Part shown: one piece after another, positions 1 through 64,000 of the stretch | How positions within the stretch are numbered: the first letter of the stretch is position 1 | How the letters are laid out: every line of letters begins with the position of its first letter | The notes under the pieces: generated by a model | Told to the model about the DNA's origin: nothing | The model's database searches: none | Seen by the model: only the letters and a program-made list of their open reading frames with translations | Program-made: the position numbers and the translations under genes | Assembly: GCF_002216685.1 (NCBI RefSeq) | Contig: NZ_CP022352.1 | Location: forward strand, 1,042,396-1,106,395 | Origin: Vibrio tarriae | GTDB taxonomy: Bacteria; Pseudomonadota; Gammaproteobacteria; Enterobacterales; Vibrionaceae | Length of the DNA stretch: 64,000 nt | Reading direction: 5' to 3'

Positions 1-27
1 CTCACTTGATGCATTTCGTTAAATACG

Positions 28-74
28 CCACAACATATAGTGTCAGTCGCAGAAAAATTAGCCCTATATAGTGT
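28..74 (+). promoter_or_regulatory. Tandem NrdR boxes upstream of nrdD
   Basis: Two AT-rich 16-base boxes begin at 28 (CCACAACATATAGTGT) and 59 (TAGCCCTATATAGTGT). Both share the TATAGTGT right half of the known NrdR box and they begin 31 bases apart, the usual three-turn spacing of NrdR box pairs. NrdR represses ribonucleotide reductase genes when dATP is high. Assignment rests on motif, spacing and the gene downstream. Confidence 0.75.
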
Positions 75-116
75 ATTTGTGGATAACTCTGTGAGTATGC
101 TGGGTAAGGAGAGAAG

Positions 117-2237
117 GTGAAACCTATCGTAATCAAACGTGATGGCTCAAAAGCGCCATTCAACAGGGATCGTATCCAAGCTGCTGTAGAAAGTGCTGCG
201 GAATATGCCGATCAGGAAATCGCTATCTACGCACTCAATGTGGCATTAGCCGTTGAACTCAAGCTGCGTGATTACGATGAGGTACACATCGCCGAGATTC
301 AAACCTTAGTAGAGAACGAGCTAATGCAAGGCCCGTACAAAGCATTAGCTCGTTCATACATTGAATATCGCCATGATCGCGATGTCGCGCGTGAGAAGCA
401 GAGCAAGCTGACCAAAGAAATCGAAGGTCTGATCCAAGAAAGCAATGCGGATCTGCTCAATGAAAACGCCAATAAAGATGGCAAAGTGATCCCGACTCAG
501 CGCGATTTGTTGGCGGGTATTGTCGCCAAGCATTATGCCAAAACGCGAATTTTGCCACGCGATGTGGTGCAAGCTCATGAATCGGGCGATATTCATTATC
601 ATGATCTGGATTACGCGCCTTTCTTCCCGATGTTTAACTGCATGTTGATTGACTTAAAAGGCATGCTGACTCATGGGTTTAAAATGGGTAATGCTGAAAT
701 TGACACGCCTAAGTCAATTTCAACCGCAACGGCAGTTACCGCGCAAATTATTGCTCAAGTCGCGAGCCATATTTATGGTGGCACTACCATCAACCGGATT
801 GATGAAGTACTGGCTCCTTATGTGACAGCAAGCTACGAAAAGCATTTAGAGATTGCCCGTGAATGGGATATTCACAGCCCTGAAGCGTTTGCTAAAGCGC
901 GCACGGAAAAAGAGTGCTATGACGCTTTCCAATCGTTGGAGTATGAAGTCAACACGCTGCATACCGCGAATGGGCAAACACCGTTTGTGACTTTTGGATT
1001 TGGTCTGGGCACAAGCTGGGAATCGCGCTTGATCCAGCAATCTATCCTGAAAAATCGCATCGCAGGTTTGGGTAAAAACCGTAAAACTGCGGTATTCCCG
1101 AAACTGGTGTTTGCTATTAAAGATGGACTCAACCATAAAGCAGAAGATCCTAATTACGACATTAAGCAGCTCGCGTTAGAGTGTGCTTCTAAACGCATGT
1201 ACCCAGATATTCTCAACTACGACAAAGTGGTTGAAGTGACGGGTTCATTCAAAACCCCGATGGGATGCCGCTCTTTCCTAAATCCTTATGAGGAAAATGG
1301 GGAGTTGATCCATGAAGGGCGTAATAATCTCGGCGTTGTAAGCTTGAACCTGCCACGCATTGCCTTGCAGGCGAAAGGCGATATAAACAAATTCTATGCT
1401 CTGTTGGATGACAAACTGAAACTTGCTCGCCGCGCATTAGATACTCGGATTAACCGCTTGGAAAATGTGAAAGCACGTGTTGCGCCAATCCTATATATGG
1501 AAGGTGCGTGTGGTGTACGTTTGAAAGCGAATGATTCGATTGCGGATATTTTCAAACATGGCCGTGCTTCTATTTCATTGGGTTATATCGGTGTACATGA
1601 AACCATCATGGCGCTGTTTGGCCAGCAAAAGCATGTTTATGATGATGTGCAACTGCGCGAAGAAGCCGTGAAAATCATTCAACATCTGCGCAACGCGGTT
1701 GAGCAGTGGAAAAAAGAGACCGGTTACGCGTTCAGTCTGTATGGCACGCCAAGTGAAAACCTGTGTAGCCGATTCTGCCGGATTGATGCCAAGCAATTTG
1801 GCGTGGTGGAAGGGGTGACGGATAAAGGTTACTACACCAACAGCTTCCATTTGGATGTTCAGAAGAAGGTGAATCCGTACGACAAGATCGATTTTGAAAT
1901 GCCGTATCCGGAAATTTCGAGCGGTGGATTTATCTGCTACGGCGAATTTCCGAACATGCAACGTAACGTAGAAGCGCTCGAAAACGTATGGGATTACAGT
2001 TATCACCGCGTGCCGTATTACGGGACCAATACGCCAATCGATGAATGTTATGAATGTGGATTTACGGGCGAATTTGACTGTACCAGTAAAGGGTTTGTTT
2101 GCCCGCGATGTGGCAATCATGAGCCGACCAAAGTCTCAGTGACGCGTCGAGTATGTGGCTATTTGGGCAGCCCAGATGCACGTCCATTTAATGTCGGTAA
2201 GCAAGAAGAAGTCAAACGTCGGGTAAAACACCTGTAA
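117..2237 (+). CDS. nrdD: Anaerobic ribonucleoside-triphosphate reductase
   Basis: Class III ribonucleotide reductase, which makes dNTPs from NTPs without oxygen, using formate as reductant and a glycyl radical. The 706 residues are the normal length. An ATP-cone fills roughly residues 3-95 and binds ATP or dATP for allosteric control. The C-terminal zinc site is visible as two CxxC pairs (CYEC and CPRC, about 643-665). The radical glycine lies in the RVCGYL motif, at about residue 681. The start is GTG at 117, chosen because AAGGAGAG lies just upstream at 106-113. It forms an operon with nrdG four bases downstream, and the NrdR boxes upstream indicate repression by NrdR. Confidence 0.97.
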   Translation: MKPIVIKRDGSKAPFNRDRIQAAVESAAEYADQEIAIYALNVALAVELKLRDYDEVHIAEIQTLVENELMQGPYKALARSYIEYRHDRDVAREKQSKLTKEIEGLIQESNADLLNENANKDGKVIPTQRDLLAGIVAKHYAKTRILPRDVVQAHESGDIHYHDLDYAPFFPMFNCMLIDLKGMLTHGFKMGNAEIDTPKSISTATAVTAQIIAQVASHIYGGTTINRIDEVLAPYVTASYEKHLEIAREWDIHSPEAFAKARTEKECYDAFQSLEYEVNTLHTANGQTPFVTFGFGLGTSWESRLIQQSILKNRIAGLGKNRKTAVFPKLVFAIKDGLNHKAEDPNYDIKQLALECASKRMYPDILNYDKVVEVTGSFKTPMGCRSFLNPYEENGELIHEGRNNLGVVSLNLPRIALQAKGDINKFYALLDDKLKLARRALDTRINRLENVKARVAPILYMEGACGVRLKANDSIADIFKHGRASISLGYIGVHETIMALFGQQKHVYDDVQLREEAVKIIQHLRNAVEQWKKETGYAFSLYGTPSENLCSRFCRIDAKQFGVVEGVTDKGYYTNSFHLDVQKKVNPYDKIDFEMPYPEISSGGFICYGEFPNMQRNVEALENVWDYSYHRVPYYGTNTPIDECYECGFTGEFDCTSKGFVCPRCGNHEPTKVSVTRRVCGYLGSPDARPFNVGKQEEVKRRVKHL

Positions 2238-2241
2238 CAGT

Positions 2242-2709
2242 ATGAATTACCATCAATATTATCCGATTGATGTGGTTAACGGGCCGGGGACACGCTGCAC
2301 GCTGTTTGTCTCCGGTTGCGTTCATCAATGTAAAGGATGTTATAACCAAAGCACGTGGTCACTGTCGTCTGGACATCGCTATACCCAAGAGATGGAAGAT
2401 AAAATCATTGCGGACTTGAAAGACACACGCATCAAACGCCGTGGACTATCGCTCTCGGGTGGCGACCCGATGCATCCTGCCAATTTATCAGCGGTGTTAC
2501 AGCTTGTGCAGCGGGTAAAAGCCGAGTGCCCAGATAAAGATATTTGGCTGTGGACGGGATATACCTTGGCGGAATTGGATGATAGCCAACAAGCTTTACT
2601 GCCATACATTGATGTGCTGGTGGATGGCAAATTTATCCAAGAGCAGGCTGATCCGGGGCTAGAGTGGCGGGGCAGTGCTAATCAAGTGATTCACCGTTTT
2701 ACCTTGTAA
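2242..2709 (+). CDS. nrdG: Anaerobic ribonucleotide reductase activating protein
   Basis: Radical SAM activase that installs the glycyl radical on NrdD. The CX3CX2C cluster motif is at residues 26-33 (CVHQCKGC), followed by a GGDPM-like SAM-binding stretch (SGGDPMHP). At 155 residues it has the family's usual size. It starts four bases after the nrdD stop with no strong ribosome binding site of its own, so translation is probably coupled to nrdD. Confidence 0.96.
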   Translation: MNYHQYYPIDVVNGPGTRCTLFVSGCVHQCKGCYNQSTWSLSSGHRYTQEMEDKIIADLKDTRIKRRGLSLSGGDPMHPANLSAVLQLVQRVKAECPDKDIWLWTGYTLAELDDSQQALLPYIDVLVDGKFIQEQADPGLEWRGSANQVIHRFTL

Positions 2710-2713
2710 ATTC

Positions 2714-2760
2714 TTGTTCTCAGCGCTCTAGTGTTTAAGGTGCGACTGAGAACAAAAAAT
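2714..2760 (+). terminator. Terminator after nrdDG
   Basis: A 10-base inverted repeat (TTGTTCTCAG at 2714 and CTGAGAACAA at 2746) closes the nrdDG operon. The run of A after the right arm gives T residues on the other strand, so it may be weak in the forward sense. Confidence 0.5.
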
Positions 2761-2830
2761 CCCTTTCGGTTTTCTCTTATCTGGTTTACTTTGTGAGTTG
2801 TTACCTGAATTTCAAAGGGTTGTGACTTTC

Positions 2831-4012
2831 ATGTTTACTCATTTACCAGCACCAGTTTTAGATCCAATACTTTCTCTCTCCGTCGCCTTTCGCAATGATC
2901 CTCGTCCACAAAAAGTGGATCTAGGAATCGGCGTTTATAAAAACAGTCTTGGCGAAACGCCCATCATGCGTGCCGTTGCGCTGGCGCAAGATAAAGTGGT
3001 GGCAAGCCAAAAAACCAAATCTTATGTCGGCCTTGCTGGTTGTGAAGAGTTCAACCAGAGCATGATGCAGCTCGTATTAGGTTCAACCTTGGATAAGGAG
3101 CGCACGATTGCAATCCAGACTCCGGGAGCCAGCGGCGCGCTGCGTATGCTGGGGGATTTAATGCGCGTGGCACAACCGGATACTACCGTGTGGATCACCG
3201 ATCCTAGTTATGTAAACCACAAGCCCGTGATGGAAGCGGCTGGTCTGAAAGTACGCTACTACCGTTATTTCAGTCGTGAAACCAAAATGGTGGATACCGA
3301 ACAAATGTTGGCTGATCTGGCACAAGCGGGAACAAAAGATGTGGTGTTACTGCATGGTTGTTGTCATAACCCGACAGGTGCCGATATTGATTTTTCTGCG
3401 TGGCAAGCGATCACTGAGTTGGCTCAGAAAAACGGCTTTATTCCTTTCGTCGACATCGCCTATCAAGGTTTTGGTGACGGCTTAGAGCAAGATGCACAGG
3501 GTTTGCGTTACATGGCTGAGCGCATGGAAGAGATGCTGATCACGACATCCTGCTCTAAGAATTTCGGCTTGTACCGTGAGCGTACGGGAGCGGCGATTGT
3601 GATCGGGAAAAATCAGCAAGAGGTGACCAATGCACGAGGCAAAATGCTGACCTTAGCGCGTTCCACTTACACTATGCCACCCGATCACGGTGCTGCTCTC
3701 GTCAAAACGGTGTTAAGAGATGAGCAGCTCACGGCAATTTGGAAACAAGAGTTGAGTGAAATGCAGCAACGTTTGTTAACTCTGCGCAAAAATTTGTGTA
3801 ATGAGTTGAGAAATCAACACAATACGCGACAATTCGACTTCATTGAGAGCCATAGAGGCATGTTTACTGTACTGGGATTCAGTGCAGAGCAGATGGGAAG
3901 GCTGCGTGAAGAGTTTGCGATTTATGGTGTCGCAGATGGACGAATTAATATCGCAGGGCTGACCGAAAAAGACATTCCTTATGTGGCCAATGCTATTATT
4001 CATGTGTCGTAA
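2831..4012 (+). CDS. Aspartate/aromatic aminotransferase (class I, AspC/TyrB group)
   Basis: PLP-dependent aminotransferase moving amino groups between aspartate or aromatic amino acids and 2-oxoglutarate. Numbered from the ATG at 2831 (393 residues) it shows CHNPTG at 178-183, the cofactor-binding DIAYQGFG at 208-215, and the PLP lysine in SCSKNFGLYRERTG (Lys243). The residue pattern fits the AspC/TyrB family, which is about 395 residues long. The ATG at 2831 is preferred to an in-frame TTG at 2798 because homologues begin at this point and AAAGGG lies upstream. Substrate preference cannot be told from the sequence. Confidence 0.9.
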   Translation: MFTHLPAPVLDPILSLSVAFRNDPRPQKVDLGIGVYKNSLGETPIMRAVALAQDKVVASQKTKSYVGLAGCEEFNQSMMQLVLGSTLDKERTIAIQTPGASGALRMLGDLMRVAQPDTTVWITDPSYVNHKPVMEAAGLKVRYYRYFSRETKMVDTEQMLADLAQAGTKDVVLLHGCCHNPTGADIDFSAWQAITELAQKNGFIPFVDIAYQGFGDGLEQDAQGLRYMAERMEEMLITTSCSKNFGLYRERTGAAIVIGKNQQEVTNARGKMLTLARSTYTMPPDHGAALVKTVLRDEQLTAIWKQELSEMQQRLLTLRKNLCNELRNQHNTRQFDFIESHRGMFTVLGFSAEQMGRLREEFAIYGVADGRINIAGLTEKDIPYVANAIIHVS

Positions 4013-59483: not shown

Positions 59484-59500
59484 GGCTCCTTTAAGGAGCC
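59484..59500 (+). promoter_or_regulatory. Palindrome sequestering the vxrE ribosome binding site
   Basis: GGCTCCTTTAAGGAGCC is a perfect palindrome. Its right arm contains AAGGAG, the ribosome binding site for the ATG at 59507. Confidence 0.75.
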
Positions 59501-59506
59501 TTATTA

Positions 59507-59668
59507 ATGTTTGATGATCTACCCACATTAACTCACGCTGAACAGCAAGTCGCCGTAGAGAAAATTCAAAAACTGATGGCAGAAGGCATCAGTACCGGAG
59601 AGGCAATCAAGATTGTTGCCCAGCAAATCCGAGAGGATAAAAAAGCGCAAAACCAAGGCACTCATTGA
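59507..59668 (+). CDS. vxrE: VxrE, UPF0181 (YoaH) family small protein
   Basis: 53 residues, beginning [20 protein letters not shown]. The match with E. coli YoaH (UPF0181: LPSLTHEQQQ, AVERIQELM, GMSSGQAI) is clear over the first 40 residues. It is a helical small protein of unknown function and the last gene of the vxr operon. Its ribosome binding site lies in a perfect hairpin 41 bases after vxrD. A terminator overlaps its final codons. Confidence 0.88.
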
Positions 59669-59679
59669 GTGCCTTTTTT
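59655..59679 (+). terminator. Terminator of the vxr operon
   Basis: AAGGCACTCA and TGAGTGCCTT form a 10-base perfect stem followed by T residues. It overlaps the vxrE stop codon. Confidence 0.92.
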
Positions 59680-59939
59680 ATTATCCGCTTTAACGGTGGT
59701 AATAATCGTAGCCAGTTTTTTCATAGTTCAAACCAGTTAAAAATACACCACCACTCGTTCATTTTTGATTTTTAATCATTAAAACAACAGGTTGCAAAAG
59801 AACATTACGCTGCCTGCTTTCGGTTTTCTTATGGAGAAATGATCTGTGTGTAATTAAATTACACCAAATAAATACCACATTGAAACGCCAGCATAATCAA
59901 CTGATAAGGTTGCAACGTCACGAAATGCTACGGTCATTA
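59680..59939. other. AT-rich flank up to the phage junction
   Basis: 260 bases of low GC without a gene. They lead to the dif-like site at 59940. In V. cholerae chromosome 2 the replication terminus recombination site dif is expected near vxrE, so this is probably the chromosomal side of that locus. Confidence 0.5.
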
Positions 59940-59973
59940 AGTGCGTATTATGTGGCCCGTCATTATGTTGAGG
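59940..59973 (+). other. attP1-type dif-like site
   Basis: XerC arm AGTGCGTATTA, a 12-base centre TGTGGCCCGTCA, and XerD-like arm TTATGTTGAGG. The V. cholerae dif1 consensus, from memory, is AGTGCGCATTA, TGTATG, TTATGTTAAAT. The longer centre is a feature of CTX-type attP sites. The same site recurs at 63874. Confidence 0.85.
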
Positions 59974-59977
59974 GGCA

Positions 59978-60055
59978 GTCGTCAGTACCATTGCGCAAGC
60001 ACTGGCGACTTCATTTGCAGCAGAACGTGGGCAGCTTGCTGCATCGTTCTGCAAA
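59978..60055 (+). other. Two hairpins between the att sites
   Basis: GTCGTCAGT pairs with ACTGGCGAC (59978-60009). TTTGCAG...AACG pairs with CGTTCTGCAAA around an inner GCAGCTTGCTGC (60014-60055). Confidence 0.6.
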
Positions 60056-60061
60056 AATGAA

Positions 60062-60091
60062 CCCGTAACATAATGTCGAGTAATACGAATT
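60062..60091 (-). other. attP2-type inverted dif-like site
   Basis: Read on the minus strand: AATTCGTATTA, then CTCGACA, then TTATGTTACGG. It faces the site at 59940 with 88 bases between, the arrangement by which single-stranded CTX phage DNA folds into a hairpin attP for XerC. Confidence 0.75.
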
Positions 60092-60117
60092 AAGGTGTTG
60101 CCCGTTTTTAAATCACG

Positions 60118-60282
60118 GCTCGATTTTCTCTGCTATACGCTCGCGTGTAGAGAGAAAATGAGCAGCCAAGCGGAAAGAACGCCAAGCACTTCCCATCATG
60201 CCGACACCGCGCGGCAGTTTCCCTCACCGTATTTTTGGACTATCTCGCGCCTCTGTGCGCGACCCTCACGTTACTGCGTGAC
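60118..60282 (+). other. Hairpin-rich probable phage origin/packaging region
   Basis: A 46-base imperfect palindrome (60118-60163, arms GCTCGATTTTCTCT and AGAGAAAATGAGC) is followed by smaller stems at 60245-60262 (TCGCGC/GCGCGA) and 60266-60281 (TCACG/CGTGA). Filamentous phages place replication origins and the packaging signal in such gene-free hairpin clusters. Which stem does what cannot be told. Confidence 0.55.
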
Positions 60283-60449
60283 CACAATGACGACCAAACG
60301 ACGGAATGACGACGACGAGAACTGAGGAGGAGGATTGGAGGAGAGCTGGGAGTAGCTTAGTGCGAATGGATGTGGATGCGGGCTTCATCCTGAAGACCGC
60401 GCCGCACCATCGCACAAGCATTCACGTAATCGGCCAAACTGACCACAGG

Positions 60450-60494
60450 GTACACTATCTTTAATAGTGTACTCTTGTCTCATTTTGAGACAAG
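60450..60494 (-). terminator. Twin hairpins ending the repressor transcript
   Basis: CTTGTCTCA/TGAGACAAG (60474-60494) and GTACACTAT/ATAGTGTAC (60450-60472) lie just past the stop of the minus-strand repressor gene. Confidence 0.7.
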
Positions 60495-60504
60495 TTTGGA
60501 TGAA

Positions 60505-60903
60505 TCACCGCTTCTTCGTTCTGGGATAAAGCAACTCGCTTGCGTGCATCTCGTCCATCTCGTCATGGTTAAGTTGCTGATACTTTAAGCTATTTATAAA
60601 ACTTTCGTGATCCTTGATATGTTGCCATGTTCTTAGCGTGATCACATCTGTTGGTGCTTGGCTAATGTGTTGCTCAATTATGAAATCATCAAGTGTGTAA
60701 CGACCATAAAGGTATCCGTTGCAAATTTCGTCTGCGGTTATACCCAAGTTTTCAGCCAACAACTTGATCTGGCTGGCTTTAGGCTCAGTATCTCCATTTT
60801 CCCACTTTAGATAAGTCTGCTTCGCAACTTTGACCCTCTTAGCGATTTCTTCTTGTGTGAATCCACATCGAGAGCGTGATTCCCTAAGTACGTCTTTAAT
60901 CAT
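60505..60903 (-). CDS. Cro/CI-type phage repressor (RstR/TlcR-like position)
   Basis: 132 residues from ATG 60903, placed by GGAGGA just upstream. The N-terminal XRE helix-turn-helix is clear: CGFTQEEIAKRVKVAKQTYL. The rest is not recognised. It is divergent from the replication gene, the place of rstR in CTX and RS1 and tlcR in TLC, and should repress that gene to keep the prophage quiet. It is not a close match to the El Tor RstR I can recall, so it would define another immunity type. Confidence 0.82.
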   Translation of the reverse strand: MIKDVLRESRSRCGFTQEEIAKRVKVAKQTYLKWENGDTEPKASQIKLLAENLGITADEICNGYLYGRYTLDDFIIEQHISQAPTDVITLRTWQHIKDHESFINSLKYQQLNHDEMDEMHASELLYPRTKKR

Positions 60904-60919
60904 TGTATCCTCCATATAG

Positions 60920-61007
60920 GTACGCTTTTTTATTAGTTTAACACCACCTTTTTACACCAATCGCTTGAAATACGCATTATTAGACTGTAACTTATAAAAA
61001 AACGTAC
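60920..61007. promoter_or_regulatory. Repressor operators and divergent promoters
   Basis: In the 121-base gap, TACGC half-sites recur: GTACGCTTTTTTATTA at 60920, TACGCATTATTAG at 60971, and inverted as TTATAAAAAAACGTAC at 60992-61007. TATAAA at 60994 is a candidate -10 box for the replication gene. Confidence 0.55.
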
Positions 61008-61024
61008 TTGACAGGGTTTTTGGC

Positions 61025-62320
61025 GTGATAGATAAGCTTAAAATATCAATACCGTTCAAAGCTGAATTTACCTTCTCGACGCATCAAGCGAAGTCGGGCG
61101 AGGCTGTGTCTTATGTTGATATTAAAGAGTGTTCACGCCGTGGCATTGGTCTTGAAGCTAAGACCATCTTCTTTACTGGTGAGGTTGGGGCAGAGCAGTA
61201 CGAAGTCGCAGACCTCCGTCATCCGTTCGAATCATTGCCAACACACTTCACTGGAATGGCATTCAAAATTTATCAGGGTACGTATCTCCGCTCCCCATGT
61301 GTTGAGTTGAAAGCGTCACCAGCCAAAATCCTCCAAGGCCATAACGTCTACGGCCCAACATCTATCGAGGTTGGAGCCATCGAAATGTTGATGGCGTTCT
61401 ACAACAATTATTCTGACGTCTACGAAATGCTAGATGTTCACTTGGCAACGCTGGATGCCATTGATGCCACTTACTCAGCGCGTGTGAAAACTGAGCTTCA
61501 AGCTAGACAAGTTATCCAGCAACTGAAAAACGTATCCAATAAGCAGATGAGAACCGCCGTACGCAATGAGCATGAAACCACTGTGTACTTCAATAAAGGC
61601 TCTCGCCACTGCGATCGTAAAGCCTATCTAAAAGGCCCCGAATTTAACCATCAATTAAATCATTTTCGGTCACTTCAAGAAAAAGGTGATACGTCGTATG
61701 ACCGTGTTATTGACGTTATGTCTGACCCAAGATTGATTAACTACGCTCGGCATCTTGTTCGCCTCGAAGCCGGAGCACATCGCAGATACCTAGACGACTT
61801 AGACATACCAAAGAACCTGTTCGACGCAATTAACTACCAGAAACAATACGAATCTACGGGACGCAACTTAATCGCTGACATCTGGACAAAAGCGTTCACA
61901 CCGTTACTAGAAGCACTGGAGGGGCAACACATGAACATCTTTAACGACGAAGAAGTGCACAACAAACTCAAGCAAACTTACTTCCGGTATACACCTAAAG
62001 GTAATGTGTCATACGCTAGAGCTGACAAGCTTTTCAGGTTCTATCGTCAGTTAGTATCTGATGGATATCATGCTACTTATCAATCGTTCACATCTCGACA
62101 AACTTTCGCTCGTCACCTAAACGACTTGCTTGCAATCGGCTTCTCCAAAGCTCAACTCCAAAACCTTCAAGGCAATGGCAACGACAATGTTGTTCCGTTG
62201 CTTCAGGTTATCGAAATCAATTTCTCACAGCAGCATCCGGCTGACTATGTAGAGCCTATCGTCGGCCATATCTCTCGCATGTATGGGTATGGTGACAACG
62301 TTATCCGTTTAACCGCTTAG
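61025..62320 (+). CDS. Phage replication initiator, gene II/X (Cri) family
   Basis: 431 residues. The central TTVYFNKGSRHCDRKAYLKG is the signature of the phage/plasmid gene II/X replication family. The C-terminal TYFRYTPKGNVSYARADKLF fits the Phage X domain. Such proteins nick the plus strand at the origin and start rolling-circle replication. TLC's Cri protein belongs to this group, while CTX and RS1 use a different one (RstA, about 360 residues). The start is GTG 61025. It is divergent from the repressor. Confidence 0.88.
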   Translation: MIDKLKISIPFKAEFTFSTHQAKSGEAVSYVDIKECSRRGIGLEAKTIFFTGEVGAEQYEVADLRHPFESLPTHFTGMAFKIYQGTYLRSPCVELKASPAKILQGHNVYGPTSIEVGAIEMLMAFYNNYSDVYEMLDVHLATLDAIDATYSARVKTELQARQVIQQLKNVSNKQMRTAVRNEHETTVYFNKGSRHCDRKAYLKGPEFNHQLNHFRSLQEKGDTSYDRVIDVMSDPRLINYARHLVRLEAGAHRRYLDDLDIPKNLFDAINYQKQYESTGRNLIADIWTKAFTPLLEALEGQHMNIFNDEEVHNKLKQTYFRYTPKGNVSYARADKLFRFYRQLVSDGYHATYQSFTSRQTFARHLNDLLAIGFSKAQLQNLQGNGNDNVVPLLQVIEINFSQQHPADYVEPIVGHISRMYGYGDNVIRLTA

Positions 62321-62396
62321 TTCAGGGGTGTGTACTCATAGGAATAGGAGCGGGTACATACCATAGAACGGCACCAACACACATAAGGACTCATTA

Positions 62397-62675
62397 ATGC
62401 TTAAAATCGAAATCTTCCCAGAAAATGCACATATCGAAACCCGCACTATCCCAAGCAAGGATGACCAGCCTGGTCGTGAGATATATGAGCAAATAGCTTA
62501 TGCACACCTCGGTGGTAAGTTCCCCGTAGAAATGAAGCTTCAACTGGAAAAAGGACAACCAGCGTATGTTGCAGGACAGTATGCAATACATCCCTCTAGC
62601 TTTGCTGTTAATAAGTACGGCTCTCTGGAGTTGAAGCGCTTCGGCTTCCTGATAGAACCCATAAACCAAAAATAA
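62397..62675 (+). CDS. Single-stranded DNA binding protein, gene V family
   Basis: 92 residues. The block KGQPAYVAGQYAIHPSSFAV aligns with EGQPAYAPGLYTVHLSSFKV of Ff phage gene V protein, and KYGSLEL with QFGSLMI. Gene V proteins coat new plus-strand DNA and stop its conversion to double strand. It follows the replication gene by 76 bases, with AAGGA near its start. With the initiator it forms an Ff-type replication module. Confidence 0.87.
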   Translation: MLKIEIFPENAHIETRTIPSKDDQPGREIYEQIAYAHLGGKFPVEMKLQLEKGQPAYVAGQYAIHPSSFAVNKYGSLELKRFGFLIEPINQK

Positions 62676-62691
62676 AGGCTAGGTTAATGTT

Positions 62692-63351
62692 ATGGAAAAC
62701 GTCAGTTCAATTTTACCGGAGCAAGACTTCTCTTGCTCCTTTGCAGACCTTTTAAAACGTCCACGCCACGCGCAAGAGCCACAAAAACTAGAGCCAAAAC
62801 GCACGATTATTCGATGGACAGAAGAGGAGAAAACACAGCTTACCGCCTTGTTTAAGCAGGGCACTAATATTGAAATCATTGCATCTCAACTCAATCGTCC
62901 GGTCGATGGCGTTCTAGGTCAAATCCGCAAGCTCGGCTTAAGACGTTGCAAGACGCTAACGCTTGAGCAAGAGCAATTCTTAAAACGTGACTTCTGGCTT
63001 TTGGGTGTCGAGGGTTGCGCTAAAAAGCTCTGTCGTAACCGTAGCACCATAGCTTATTACGCCAAGCTACTTAACCTCAAAAAACCCACTCGAGACGAAG
63101 TTGACCCACCAATCCCACGCTGTTTATTACCTTATGACATGGTTAAACGGGTAGCGATTCTACAGCGCAAATCACCGACATCGAGAAACCAAGTTGAAGA
63201 TGCGGTGGTTATCTTTTACGACAAGAACGGCCCATCAACCGCAATGATGGCCATGCACTTAGACGAACTCTGTGCAGCATTGGACACACACTTTAGACGT
63301 AAGTCTGGCGTCACCGCATCAGCTTTGATGTATGGGTATAAGGCGGTGTGA
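62692..63351 (+). CDS. Unknown phage protein with Myb/HTH-like region
   Basis: 219 residues. No named family is certain. Residues 41-85 (IRWTEEEKTQLTALFKQG, then IASQLNRPVDGVLGQIRKLG) look like a Myb/SANT or GcrA-like DNA-binding helix bundle. Residues 90-125 look like a second helix-turn-helix (GCAKKLCRNRSTIAYYAKLL). So it may bind DNA, for example as activator, antirepressor or assembly/packaging factor. It starts 16 bases after the gene V homologue. Confidence 0.7.
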   Translation: MENVSSILPEQDFSCSFADLLKRPRHAQEPQKLEPKRTIIRWTEEEKTQLTALFKQGTNIEIIASQLNRPVDGVLGQIRKLGLRRCKTLTLEQEQFLKRDFWLLGVEGCAKKLCRNRSTIAYYAKLLNLKKPTRDEVDPPIPRCLLPYDMVKRVAILQRKSPTSRNQVEDAVVIFYDKNGPSTAMMAMHLDELCAALDTHFRRKSGVTASALMYGYKAV

Positions 63352-63352
63352 T

Positions 63353-63607
63353 ATGAGCACTCGTTATAGAACTCACCGGTTTAAACGCCGTGATCATTGT
63401 CCCCAATGTGGGGATATCGACTTCCTATGCACCGAGTACATTATGGATAATCAGGTTTACATGTACGAGGAGCAGTGTCCTAGGTGTTACGACTTCTGGC
63501 AAATAGGCCTTGAAGACTCACTCAACGATTACCGTAAATTCAACAACATCACATCTGGAGGCAAGTGTGAAAAAGATCTTCTACAAGGGCGGCGTCAGCA
63601 TGGTTAA
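63353..63607 (+). CDS. Small zinc-ribbon protein A
   Basis: 84 residues from ATG 63353, whose start overlaps the TGA of the previous gene (TGATATG). CPQC and CPRC pairs (about 16-19 and 42-45) give a four-cysteine zinc ribbon, with basic residues before it. It overlaps the next gene by about 40 bases, a compact phage arrangement. The function is unknown. Confidence 0.65.
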   Translation: MSTRYRTHRFKRRDHCPQCGDIDFLCTEYIMDNQVYMYEEQCPRCYDFWQIGLEDSLNDYRKFNNITSGGKCEKDLLQGRRQHG

Positions 63608-63764
63608 TCGCCAAGATGACCCAACATATCAATGCACATCTTGTTATAAACCGTGGTTCCAAGATGAAATTTTTACAGGCTTAGTCATTATGCAGCCGCA
63701 ATGTCCATCCTGTGGGGCTGTCATTCGCAAGCTCACCAAAGACCAACCATTAATCACCAAATGA
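63567..63764 (+). CDS. Small zinc-ribbon protein B
   Basis: 65 residues from GTG 63567, which follows GGAGG; an ATG at 63600 would give 54. CTSC and CPSC pairs form another zinc ribbon. It lies in a different frame over the end of protein A. The two ribbons are not obvious copies of each other. The function is unknown. Confidence 0.6.
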   Translation: MKKIFYKGGVSMVNRQDDPTYQCTSCYKPWFQDEIFTGLVIMQPQCPSCGAVIRKLTKDQPLITK

Positions 63765-63773
63765 CAGGGAGCT

Positions 63774-63805
63774 AACTGCCATAAGGCTTAAGCTTTGTGG
63801 CAGTT
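63774..63805 (+). terminator. Hairpin ending the phage operon
   Basis: AACTGCCA and TGGCAGTT form the outer stem, with further partial pairing in the loop. No long T run follows, so it could serve as an RNA or DNA structure signal. Confidence 0.55.
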
Positions 63806-63873
63806 GAAACCTGTAACACTAATCAAGCCGCTTGAAATCTGTTACAAAAATCATCCATAAACTAAAACACCTT

Positions 63874-64000
63874 AGTGCGTATTATGTGGCCCGTCATTAT
63901 GTTGAGGGGCAGTCGTCAGTACCATTGCGCAAGCACTGGCGACTTCATTTGCAGCAGAACGTGGGCAGCTTGCTGCATCGTTCTGCAAAAATGAACCCGT
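63874..64000 (+). repeat. Second copy of the phage left end
   Basis: All 127 bases are identical to 59940-60066. The preceding bases CCTT plus the site give CCTTAGTGCGTATTATGT, which resembles the end repeat of CTX/RS1. The copy is cut by the window edge, so the next unit is unseen. Confidence 0.95.

What the first reader, a model, noticed from the sequence alone, without database searches (positions are those of the whole stretch)
59940..63873. Compact satellite-like filamentous phage at the expected dif2 locus
A 3,934 bp unit has attachment, origin, repressor and replication genes but no virion genes. It sits next to vxrE, near where chromosome 2 dif is expected, and its left end recurs after one unit. 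It would depend on a helper phage, as RS1 and TLC do, yet its gene set matches neither. It may be an undescribed member of the group.
Basis: partly seen in the sequence, partly recalled or inferred. Interest (0 to 1): 0.85.

Follow-up and report, generated by a model that had tools for sequence, protein, structure and literature searches.

The report
Capsidless satellite of filamentous vibriophages
Two head-to-tail copies of a 3.9-kilobase element at the terminus of a Vibrio's second chromosome look able to copy and insert themselves but carry no coat genes, so they probably travel in particles made by other thread-like phages; compact elements of similar plan sit at the same kind of site in other vibrios.

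Summary
[quoted passage not shown] Beyond it come a dif site and chromosome, no virion genes. The genome has no Zot gene, the marker used for a filamentous helper; 74 of 227 genus genomes do. The unit is a mosaic: CTX-type attP, M13/IKe-type viral-strand origin with a gpII-type Rep, gV-type SSB, RstR-like repressor, and an accessory block (Orf219-Orf84-Orf54); Orf219 has no match in 50,697 phage records. Compact units of this plan, often tandem and ending at dif, occur in other Vibrionaceae; Rep changes between two Pfam families while Orf219 persists; 14 virion queries gave 0 hits in 15 units. A motif in the unit lies 27-1135 bp downstream of Zot in 41 of 69 matching IMG/VR stretches: a packaging-signal candidate. 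Best reading: a satellite of Zot-type filamentous phages, distinct from RS1 and, as far as tested, from TLC. Replication and integration modules are well supported; packaging by a helper is inferred. New variant of a known kind.

The parts
59940..63873 (+). Satellite unit, copy 1 (3,934 bp)
59940..60099 (+). CTX-type attP(+): XerC arm at 59940-59950, inverted partner near 60080-60099; folds as a single-strand hairpin
60118..60163 (+). Conserved hairpin; candidate complementary (minus) strand initiation site
60313..60330 (+). Motif CGACGANNACTGAGGAGG, found downstream of Zot in many filamentous phages; candidate packaging signal
60447..60493 (+). Viral-strand (plus) origin of M13/IKe type, two stem-loops
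60505..60915 (-). HTH_3 repressor, RstR-like but below the RstR family cut-off (136 aa)
61025..62320 (+). Rep, gpII/X family (PF05144 + PF05155, 431 aa)
62397..62675 (+). gV-type single-strand DNA-binding protein (PF02303, 92 aa)
62692..63351 (+). Orf219, probable DNA-binding regulator with two predicted HTH units
63353..63607 (+). Orf84, zinc-ribbon-like small protein with two conserved CPxC pairs
63600..63764 (+). Orf54, second small CxxC protein
63874..64000 (+). First 127 bases of copy 2, which continues at G000:C1:1-3812

Best explanation
A temperate satellite of Zot-type filamentous vibriophages, present as a tandem dimer at the dif site of chromosome 2. Proposed cycle: (1) single-stranded DNA arrives in a helper-made particle; (2) the hairpin at 60118-60163 starts the complementary strand; (3) the folded attP(+) is joined to dif by host XerC/XerD as for CTXphi, at a dif whose centre begins TGT like the attP; (4) the RstR-like repressor keeps it quiet; (5) when derepressed, Rep nicks the M13/IKe-type origin, and the tandem copies let rolling-circle replication release single-stranded units, coated by the SSB; (6) helper coat and Zot/pI proteins package it through a shared signal, best candidate the motif at 60313-60330; (7) Orf219/Orf84/Orf54 regulate its own or the helper's genes, as the RS1 antirepressor does. 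Supported by sequence: module identities behind 3, 4 and 5, tandem copies, absence of virion genes. Inferred: 1, 2, 6, 7, and every step as a process.
For: attP similarity to CTX end repeat and hairpin fold; plus-origin profile finds the annotated IKe viral-strand origin (34.1 bits) and M13 (28.1 bits), best of 200 shuffles 6.3; gpII-type Rep; 0 hits of 14 virion proteins in 15 units against 32 in three complete phages; purifying selection, dN/dS 0.03-0.15; motif downstream of Zot in 41 of 69 stretches; same plan in other Vibrionaceae with dif at the array end in 11 other loci from 8 sources; pZY5 shows that a close Rep (86.6%) drives a free 3.5-kb circle.
Against: No helper is resident, and only 3 of 12 Orf219-positive genomes carry Zot against 74 of 227 overall. 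The motif is absent from several satellites (L011-L014, L016, L017, L020, L021, L054, L057, L061) and from the PE002 phages. The motif of the pZY5/L014 class was found in 0 IMG/VR stretches. Copy 2 as deposited has broken repressor and Rep frames. No particle or induction data.
Confidence: 0.72

Rival explanations
1. An integrative rolling-circle plasmid of phage ancestry (like pZY5) that uses XerCD and spreads by transformation or conjugative co-transfer and is never packaged.
For: pZY5 is a free circular plasmid with an 86.6% identical Rep; no resident helper; helper packaging is not shown.
Against: It keeps a single-strand attP of a phage and a motif otherwise found downstream of Zot. pZY5 itself could be a packaged satellite.
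Confidence: 0.17
2. A decayed or deleted filamentous prophage that lost its virion genes recently.
For: Copy 2 has frame breaks as deposited; gene order repressor-Rep-SSB is that of phages.
Against: Orf219/Orf84 stand where phages have coat genes and are conserved across species; genes of copy 1 are intact and under purifying selection.
Confidence: 0.06
3. A divergent RS1 or TLC element.
For: CTX-type attP and RstR-like repressor as in RS1; the Pfam name Phage_CRI recalls the TLC gene cri (recalled).
Against: Rep is PF05144, while the RstA-like proteins tested are PF02486; DNA similarity to CTX records is confined to the attachment region and flank; no XafT-family protein (NF040522 20.8 bits against a cut-off of 70); attP is not the single 28-bp TLC type of PMC4246890.
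Confidence: 0.03

Closest known systems
RS1 satellite of CTXphi
   Same: CTX-type attP, dif integration, repressor-Rep-SSB order, no virion genes (RS1 traits from passages of PMC4246890, PMC7567579, PMC11389934)
   Different: Rep of another Pfam family with an M13/IKe-type origin; Orf219-Orf84-Orf54 in place of the antirepressor gene; repressor only 41.7% identical over 60 aa to an RstR-like protein
TLCphi satellite
   Same: Autonomous replication module without morphogenesis genes, at dif (passages of PMC4246890)
   Different: TLC attP is a 28-bp site used as double strand; here a CTX-type folded attP. No XafT-family protein. No TLC sequence was compared
pZY5, V. parahaemolyticus plasmid NC_012859.1 (3,504 bp)
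   Same: Repressor, Rep (86.6%), SSB (77%), the same plus-origin and hairpin
   Different: No Orf219/Orf84; annotated as a plasmid; not described as a satellite in the record
Zot-type filamentous phages VAI1/VAI2 and IMG/VR L023
   Same: Share the motif (both), and L023 also the hairpin, plus-origin core and a 67% Rep
   Different: They carry coat, receptor-binding and Zot genes
[quoted passage not shown] 2024)
   Same: By its title, a small replicon acting as an inovirus satellite
   Different: Only the title was seen, in the reference list of PMC11389934; the paper is not held, so nothing was compared

Membership tests
Filamentous-phage satellite | Own replication genes and origin | tested here: met
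Filamentous-phage satellite | No virion genes | tested here: met
Filamentous-phage satellite | Packaged in particles of a helper | not testable with these tools
   only a shared candidate signal
CTX-type integrative element (IMEX) | Folded single-strand attP of about 150 nt, integration at dif | tested here: met
   function itself not tested
RS1 | RstA-type replication initiator | tested here: not met
   PF05144 here; RstA-like proteins tested are PF02486
RS1 | RstR-family repressor | tested here: not met
   NF041951 42.8 bits, cut-off 80; distant similarity only
TLCphi | XafT (VC1465 family) Xer activation factor (recalled) | tested here: not met
   NF040522 best 20.8 bits, cut-off 70
TLCphi | 28-bp dif-like attP | tested here: not met
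   attP is CTX-type; feature from PMC4246890
TLCphi | DNA or Rep identity to a TLC genome | not tested
   no TLC record was found in the collections used
Ff/IKe-type replicon | gpII-type Rep with matching viral-strand origin | tested here: met
Autonomous inovirus | Zot/pI and coat genes | tested here: not met

The most novel reading that the evidence does not exclude
A Vibrionaceae-wide class of filamentous-phage satellites built from a constant regulatory cassette (Orf219, usually with Orf84), placed where phages keep their coat genes, onto which different replication modules (gpII-type or Rep_trans-type, with their SSBs) are swapped. The cassette would be the helper-exploiting module, and the motif downstream of Zot would be the packaging signal that decides which phage can carry a given satellite.
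Probability: 0.4. Interest if true: 0.78.

Novelty: new variant of a known kind. Interest (0 to 1): 0.62.

Why it matters
RS1 and TLC are the satellites of filamentous vibriophages named in the passages read here, and both affect how CTX-type phages move. A wider set of such elements at dif sites across vibrios would make helper-dependent passengers a regular part of filamentous phage biology. The motif downstream of Zot is a concrete, testable candidate for the packaging signal of Zot-type phages. Rep swapping with a constant cassette points to the genes that may make an element a satellite.

Tried and rejected
Hairpin 60118-60163 as packaging signal: first favoured because complete phages carry it. 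Dropped because its apical pattern also occurs in Vibrio genomes outside phage-like settings and because VAI2 lacks the hairpin although its Zot is 98% identical to that of L023, which has it. The minus-origin reading leans on recalled facts about extended -10 and primosome sites.

Motif 60313-60330 as the plus origin: rejected because it occurs with two Rep families and an M13/IKe-type origin lies at 60447-60493.

A clean pairing of one origin type with one Rep type: not upheld. Rep386-type units carry another conserved element in this place, but L050/L051, L071, L084 and L160 carry both.

A motif of the pZY5/L014 class expected in some Zot phage: 0 stretches in IMG/VR, a failed prediction.

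Defence role of the accessory genes: no PADLOC match for Orf219, Orf84 or Orf54. Fold of Orf219: no PDB match at E <= 0.001. Rfam: none at E <= 1 in 59500-64000. sigma-70 and terminator scans: no excess over shuffles; one terminator-like site is the plus origin. The first nhmmer run printed no hits; a trimmed profile was used.

Prior description: full-text searches. No listed title describes this element, but the library lacks most subscription papers and preprints, and supplements could not be searched. Passages were seen of PMC4246890, PMC11630473, PMC7412436, PMC2533119, PMC4177673, PMC11389934 and PMC7567579; of the other papers only listings.
Full report
What was checked. The unit 59940-63873 and its recurrence are real: a 127-nt exact repeat at spacing 3934. 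The window is the right end of contig G000:C1 (1,106,395 bp). The first 3,826 bases of that contig align to the unit from exactly where the window stops, with no substitution and five single-base gaps. The contig is best read as a circular chromosome 2 cut inside the second copy. The five length differences all lie in the first 1.5 kb of the contig and break repressor and Rep frames of copy 2; sequencing indels or real decay are both possible. After copy 2 come a 28-bp dif-like site at L003:3813 and chromosomal genes. The adjoining unit is therefore the same element and not a phage with virion genes.

Protein content. Repressor: HTH_3, RstR-like but under the NF041951 cut-off; 41.7% identical over 60 aa to an RstR-like protein of a CTX record. 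Rep: PF05144 plus PF05155, 41.5% to IKe gene II. SSB: PF02303. Orf219, Orf84 and Orf54 reached no Pfam or NCBIfam cut-off. Orf219 matches phrog_21605 over its full length (1.7e-151) and Orf84 matches phrog_21994 (4.6e-62), both of unknown function. Orf219 gave no match in 50,697 phage records, none in 72,556 plasmid records and 3 loci in IMG/VR; the tools warn that records near the window's genome may be left out. Among about 5.8 billion clustered proteins, 28 homologues passed E <= 0.001 of 153 candidates, and every taxon named in that list is Vibrio; Salinivibrio appears. The AlphaFold model is of moderate confidence (pLDDT 71, pTM 0.35) and shows two helical HTH-like stretches followed by an alpha/beta part; PDB matches are weak, none at E <= 0.001. 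Orf219 is called a probable DNA-binding regulator, no more.

Cis anatomy. (a) attP: similarity to CTX records covers the attachment region (160 bp at 92.3% in H16-H18) and in ten records also the flank left of the unit (88.0-88.4%). It folds as a hairpin. (b) Hairpin 60118-60163: profile hits in this unit, L014, L018, L021, L023, L024, L049-L051, L053, L058 and L059, and none in the other loci searched, VAI2 and several satellites among them. Ten examples, some identical, fold alike. On nine aligned sequences (8 distinct) 96.9% of cells pair; 5 of 20 pairs show changes on both sides (3 of 500 shuffles reach that); the covariation score is reached by 0 of 500 shuffles; the number of pair types is not exceptional (263 of 500). 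The apical pattern occurs in 19 of 227 genus genomes, with 0 reversed-pattern matches in the rows. Of 16 such loci inspected, L079, L087 and L094 have a resolvase-like ORF (named by recall) 99 bp away, while L073, L084 and L085 look phage-like. A single-strand initiation site fits better than a packaging signal. (c) Motif 60313-60330: exact in 69 IMG/VR stretches; 46 of 69 have a Zot ORF; 42 sites in 41 stretches lie 27-1135 bp (median 485.5) downstream of Zot on the same strand. Eight other sites in Zot stretches do not. 23 stretches have no Zot hit, 21 of these no hit to any of the filamentous queries. Many of the 41 are near-identical, so they are not 41 independent cases. (d) Plus origin 60447-60493: a profile from the window, L014, L021 and L023 finds the annotated viral-strand origin of IKe and the M13 origin at 34.1 and 28.1 bits; the best of 200 order-1 shuffles scores 6.3. 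Rep386-type units carry another conserved element in this place, but L050/L051, L071, L084 and L160 carry both, so the pairing of origin and Rep type is not clean.

The family. tblastn over 24 loci and period analysis show compact units with Rep, mostly repressor and SSB. With Orf219: Salinivibrio sp. ES.052 (3649-bp tandem), V. renipiscarius (three loci), V. sonorensis (4188-bp contig), V. mytili (4391-bp contig), G207 (4682-bp tandem), IMG/VR L018 (3740 bp, beside a complete filamentous prophage), L019 (46-bp terminal repeat on 4453 bp, so a 4407-bp circle) and L020. Without a strong Orf219: G006 (3371-bp tandem, three copies), G007 (about 3429, two copies), G172 (3604, three copies on one contig and one on the other), G059 (about 3115, four copies, RstA frames split), G070 (cut by a contig end), G132 (3894-bp contig) and pZY5. 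A canonical dif sits at the end of the array in 11 other loci from 8 sources (L011, L013, L016, L020, L053, L055, L056, L057, L058, L059, L060). In five genomes (G007, G059, G070, G132, G172) weak Orf219-like matches fall downstream of SSB or Rep (coordinates), where phages have coat genes; the G007 match contains stop codons. The weak matches in G063 and G134 have no Rep or SSB nearby and may be chance. The genus search found 12 of 227 genomes with A1 matches, 5 of them strong, and Orf84 in 4 of 227, all among those 5. G019, G154 and G169 have contigs of the same lengths as the V. mytili, V. renipiscarius and V. sonorensis records and are counted once.

Rep swapping. Rep is PF05144 in the window, pZY5 (86.6% identical), L014 (87%), L053 and, more divergent, the L018 unit; it is PF02486 in L015 and L020 and of the L020 type by tblastn in L019 and L060. 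Orf219 stays in the window, L014, L018, L015, L019, L020 and L060; Orf84 in the same except L014, where it was not detected. dN/dS is 0.049 (Rep) and 0.106 (SSB) against pZY5, and 0.153, 0.03 and 0.095 for Orf219, Orf84 and Orf54 against L018; synonymous distance to pZY5 exceeds 1.3, so those two ratios are rough.

No virion genes. 14 virion proteins of three phages against 971 ORF segments from 15 units: 0 hits at E <= 0.01; the same queries gave 32 hits in three complete phages, some of them the source proteins themselves. Some unit borders in that test are contig ends or approximate. Zot (PF05707) is absent from this genome and present in 74 of 227 genus genomes. Of the 12 A1-positive genomes 3 have Zot (G059, G063, G132), so these elements are not enriched beside a resident Zot phage; a helper would have to arrive from outside.

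Site choice. This genome's chromosome-2 dif has centre TGTATG and its chromosome-1 dif CGTGCA. PMC2533119 (passages) gives dif1 as the consensus with two changes, which makes its centre TGTATG, and dif2 as differing in four centre bases. The types therefore look exchanged between the chromosomes. PMC4246890 (passages) says CTX specificity depends on the bases beside the XerC site; the unit's attP continues TGT after the XerC arm, which fits chromosome 2 here and not chromosome 1. That this explains the location is inference.

Verdict. Module identities, tandem arrangement, dif location and lack of virion genes are strong. Helper packaging is inferred from anatomy, from analogy with RS1 and TLC, and from the shared motif. 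The element is not RS1 (Rep family, accessory genes) and, as far as tested, not TLC. It is a new variant of a known kind. Close sequences are already deposited (Rep 99% identical, named V. cholerae; Orf219 96%). Species: Rep names and the neighbourhood point to V. cholerae or a close relative; no call establishes it.

Noticed in passing
G000:C1:3816-3840 and G000:C2:1302714-1302738: The dif centres of the two chromosomes (TGTATG on chromosome 2, CGTGCA on chromosome 1) look exchanged compared with what PMC2533119 reports for N16961.
   Followed up: partly
L003:3815-3971 and L169:1500-1655: About 150 bp to the right of dif is 85% identical (133/157, dif included) between the two chromosomes, and parts recur beside dif in L011, L013, L016, L020, L053, L055, L056, L058, L059; PMC2533119 reported no conserved motif beside dif.
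   Followed up: partly
L075, L076, L079, L080, L081, L087, L088, L090, L094, L100, L101, L102: The apical hairpin pattern of the unit also occurs in Vibrio genomes with a different lower stem, in three cases 99 bp from a resolvase-like ORF. Its role there is unknown.
   Followed up: partly
L050 (PQ189298.1) 1-3330 compared with L049 (PQ189297.1): This phage record holds about 3.3 kb more than its sister record, with a homeodomain-like ORF and a second copy of the hairpin; it may be a phage plus a satellite in one record.
   Followed up: no
L020:1-11965: An Orf219-bearing unit ending at dif lies next to ORFs that look like a tailless phage (by recall), with the same sui1-like gene beyond dif as in this genome.
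   Followed up: no
G000:C1:1-1500: The second copy differs from the first only by five one-base length differences near the record start, with no substitutions.
   Followed up: no
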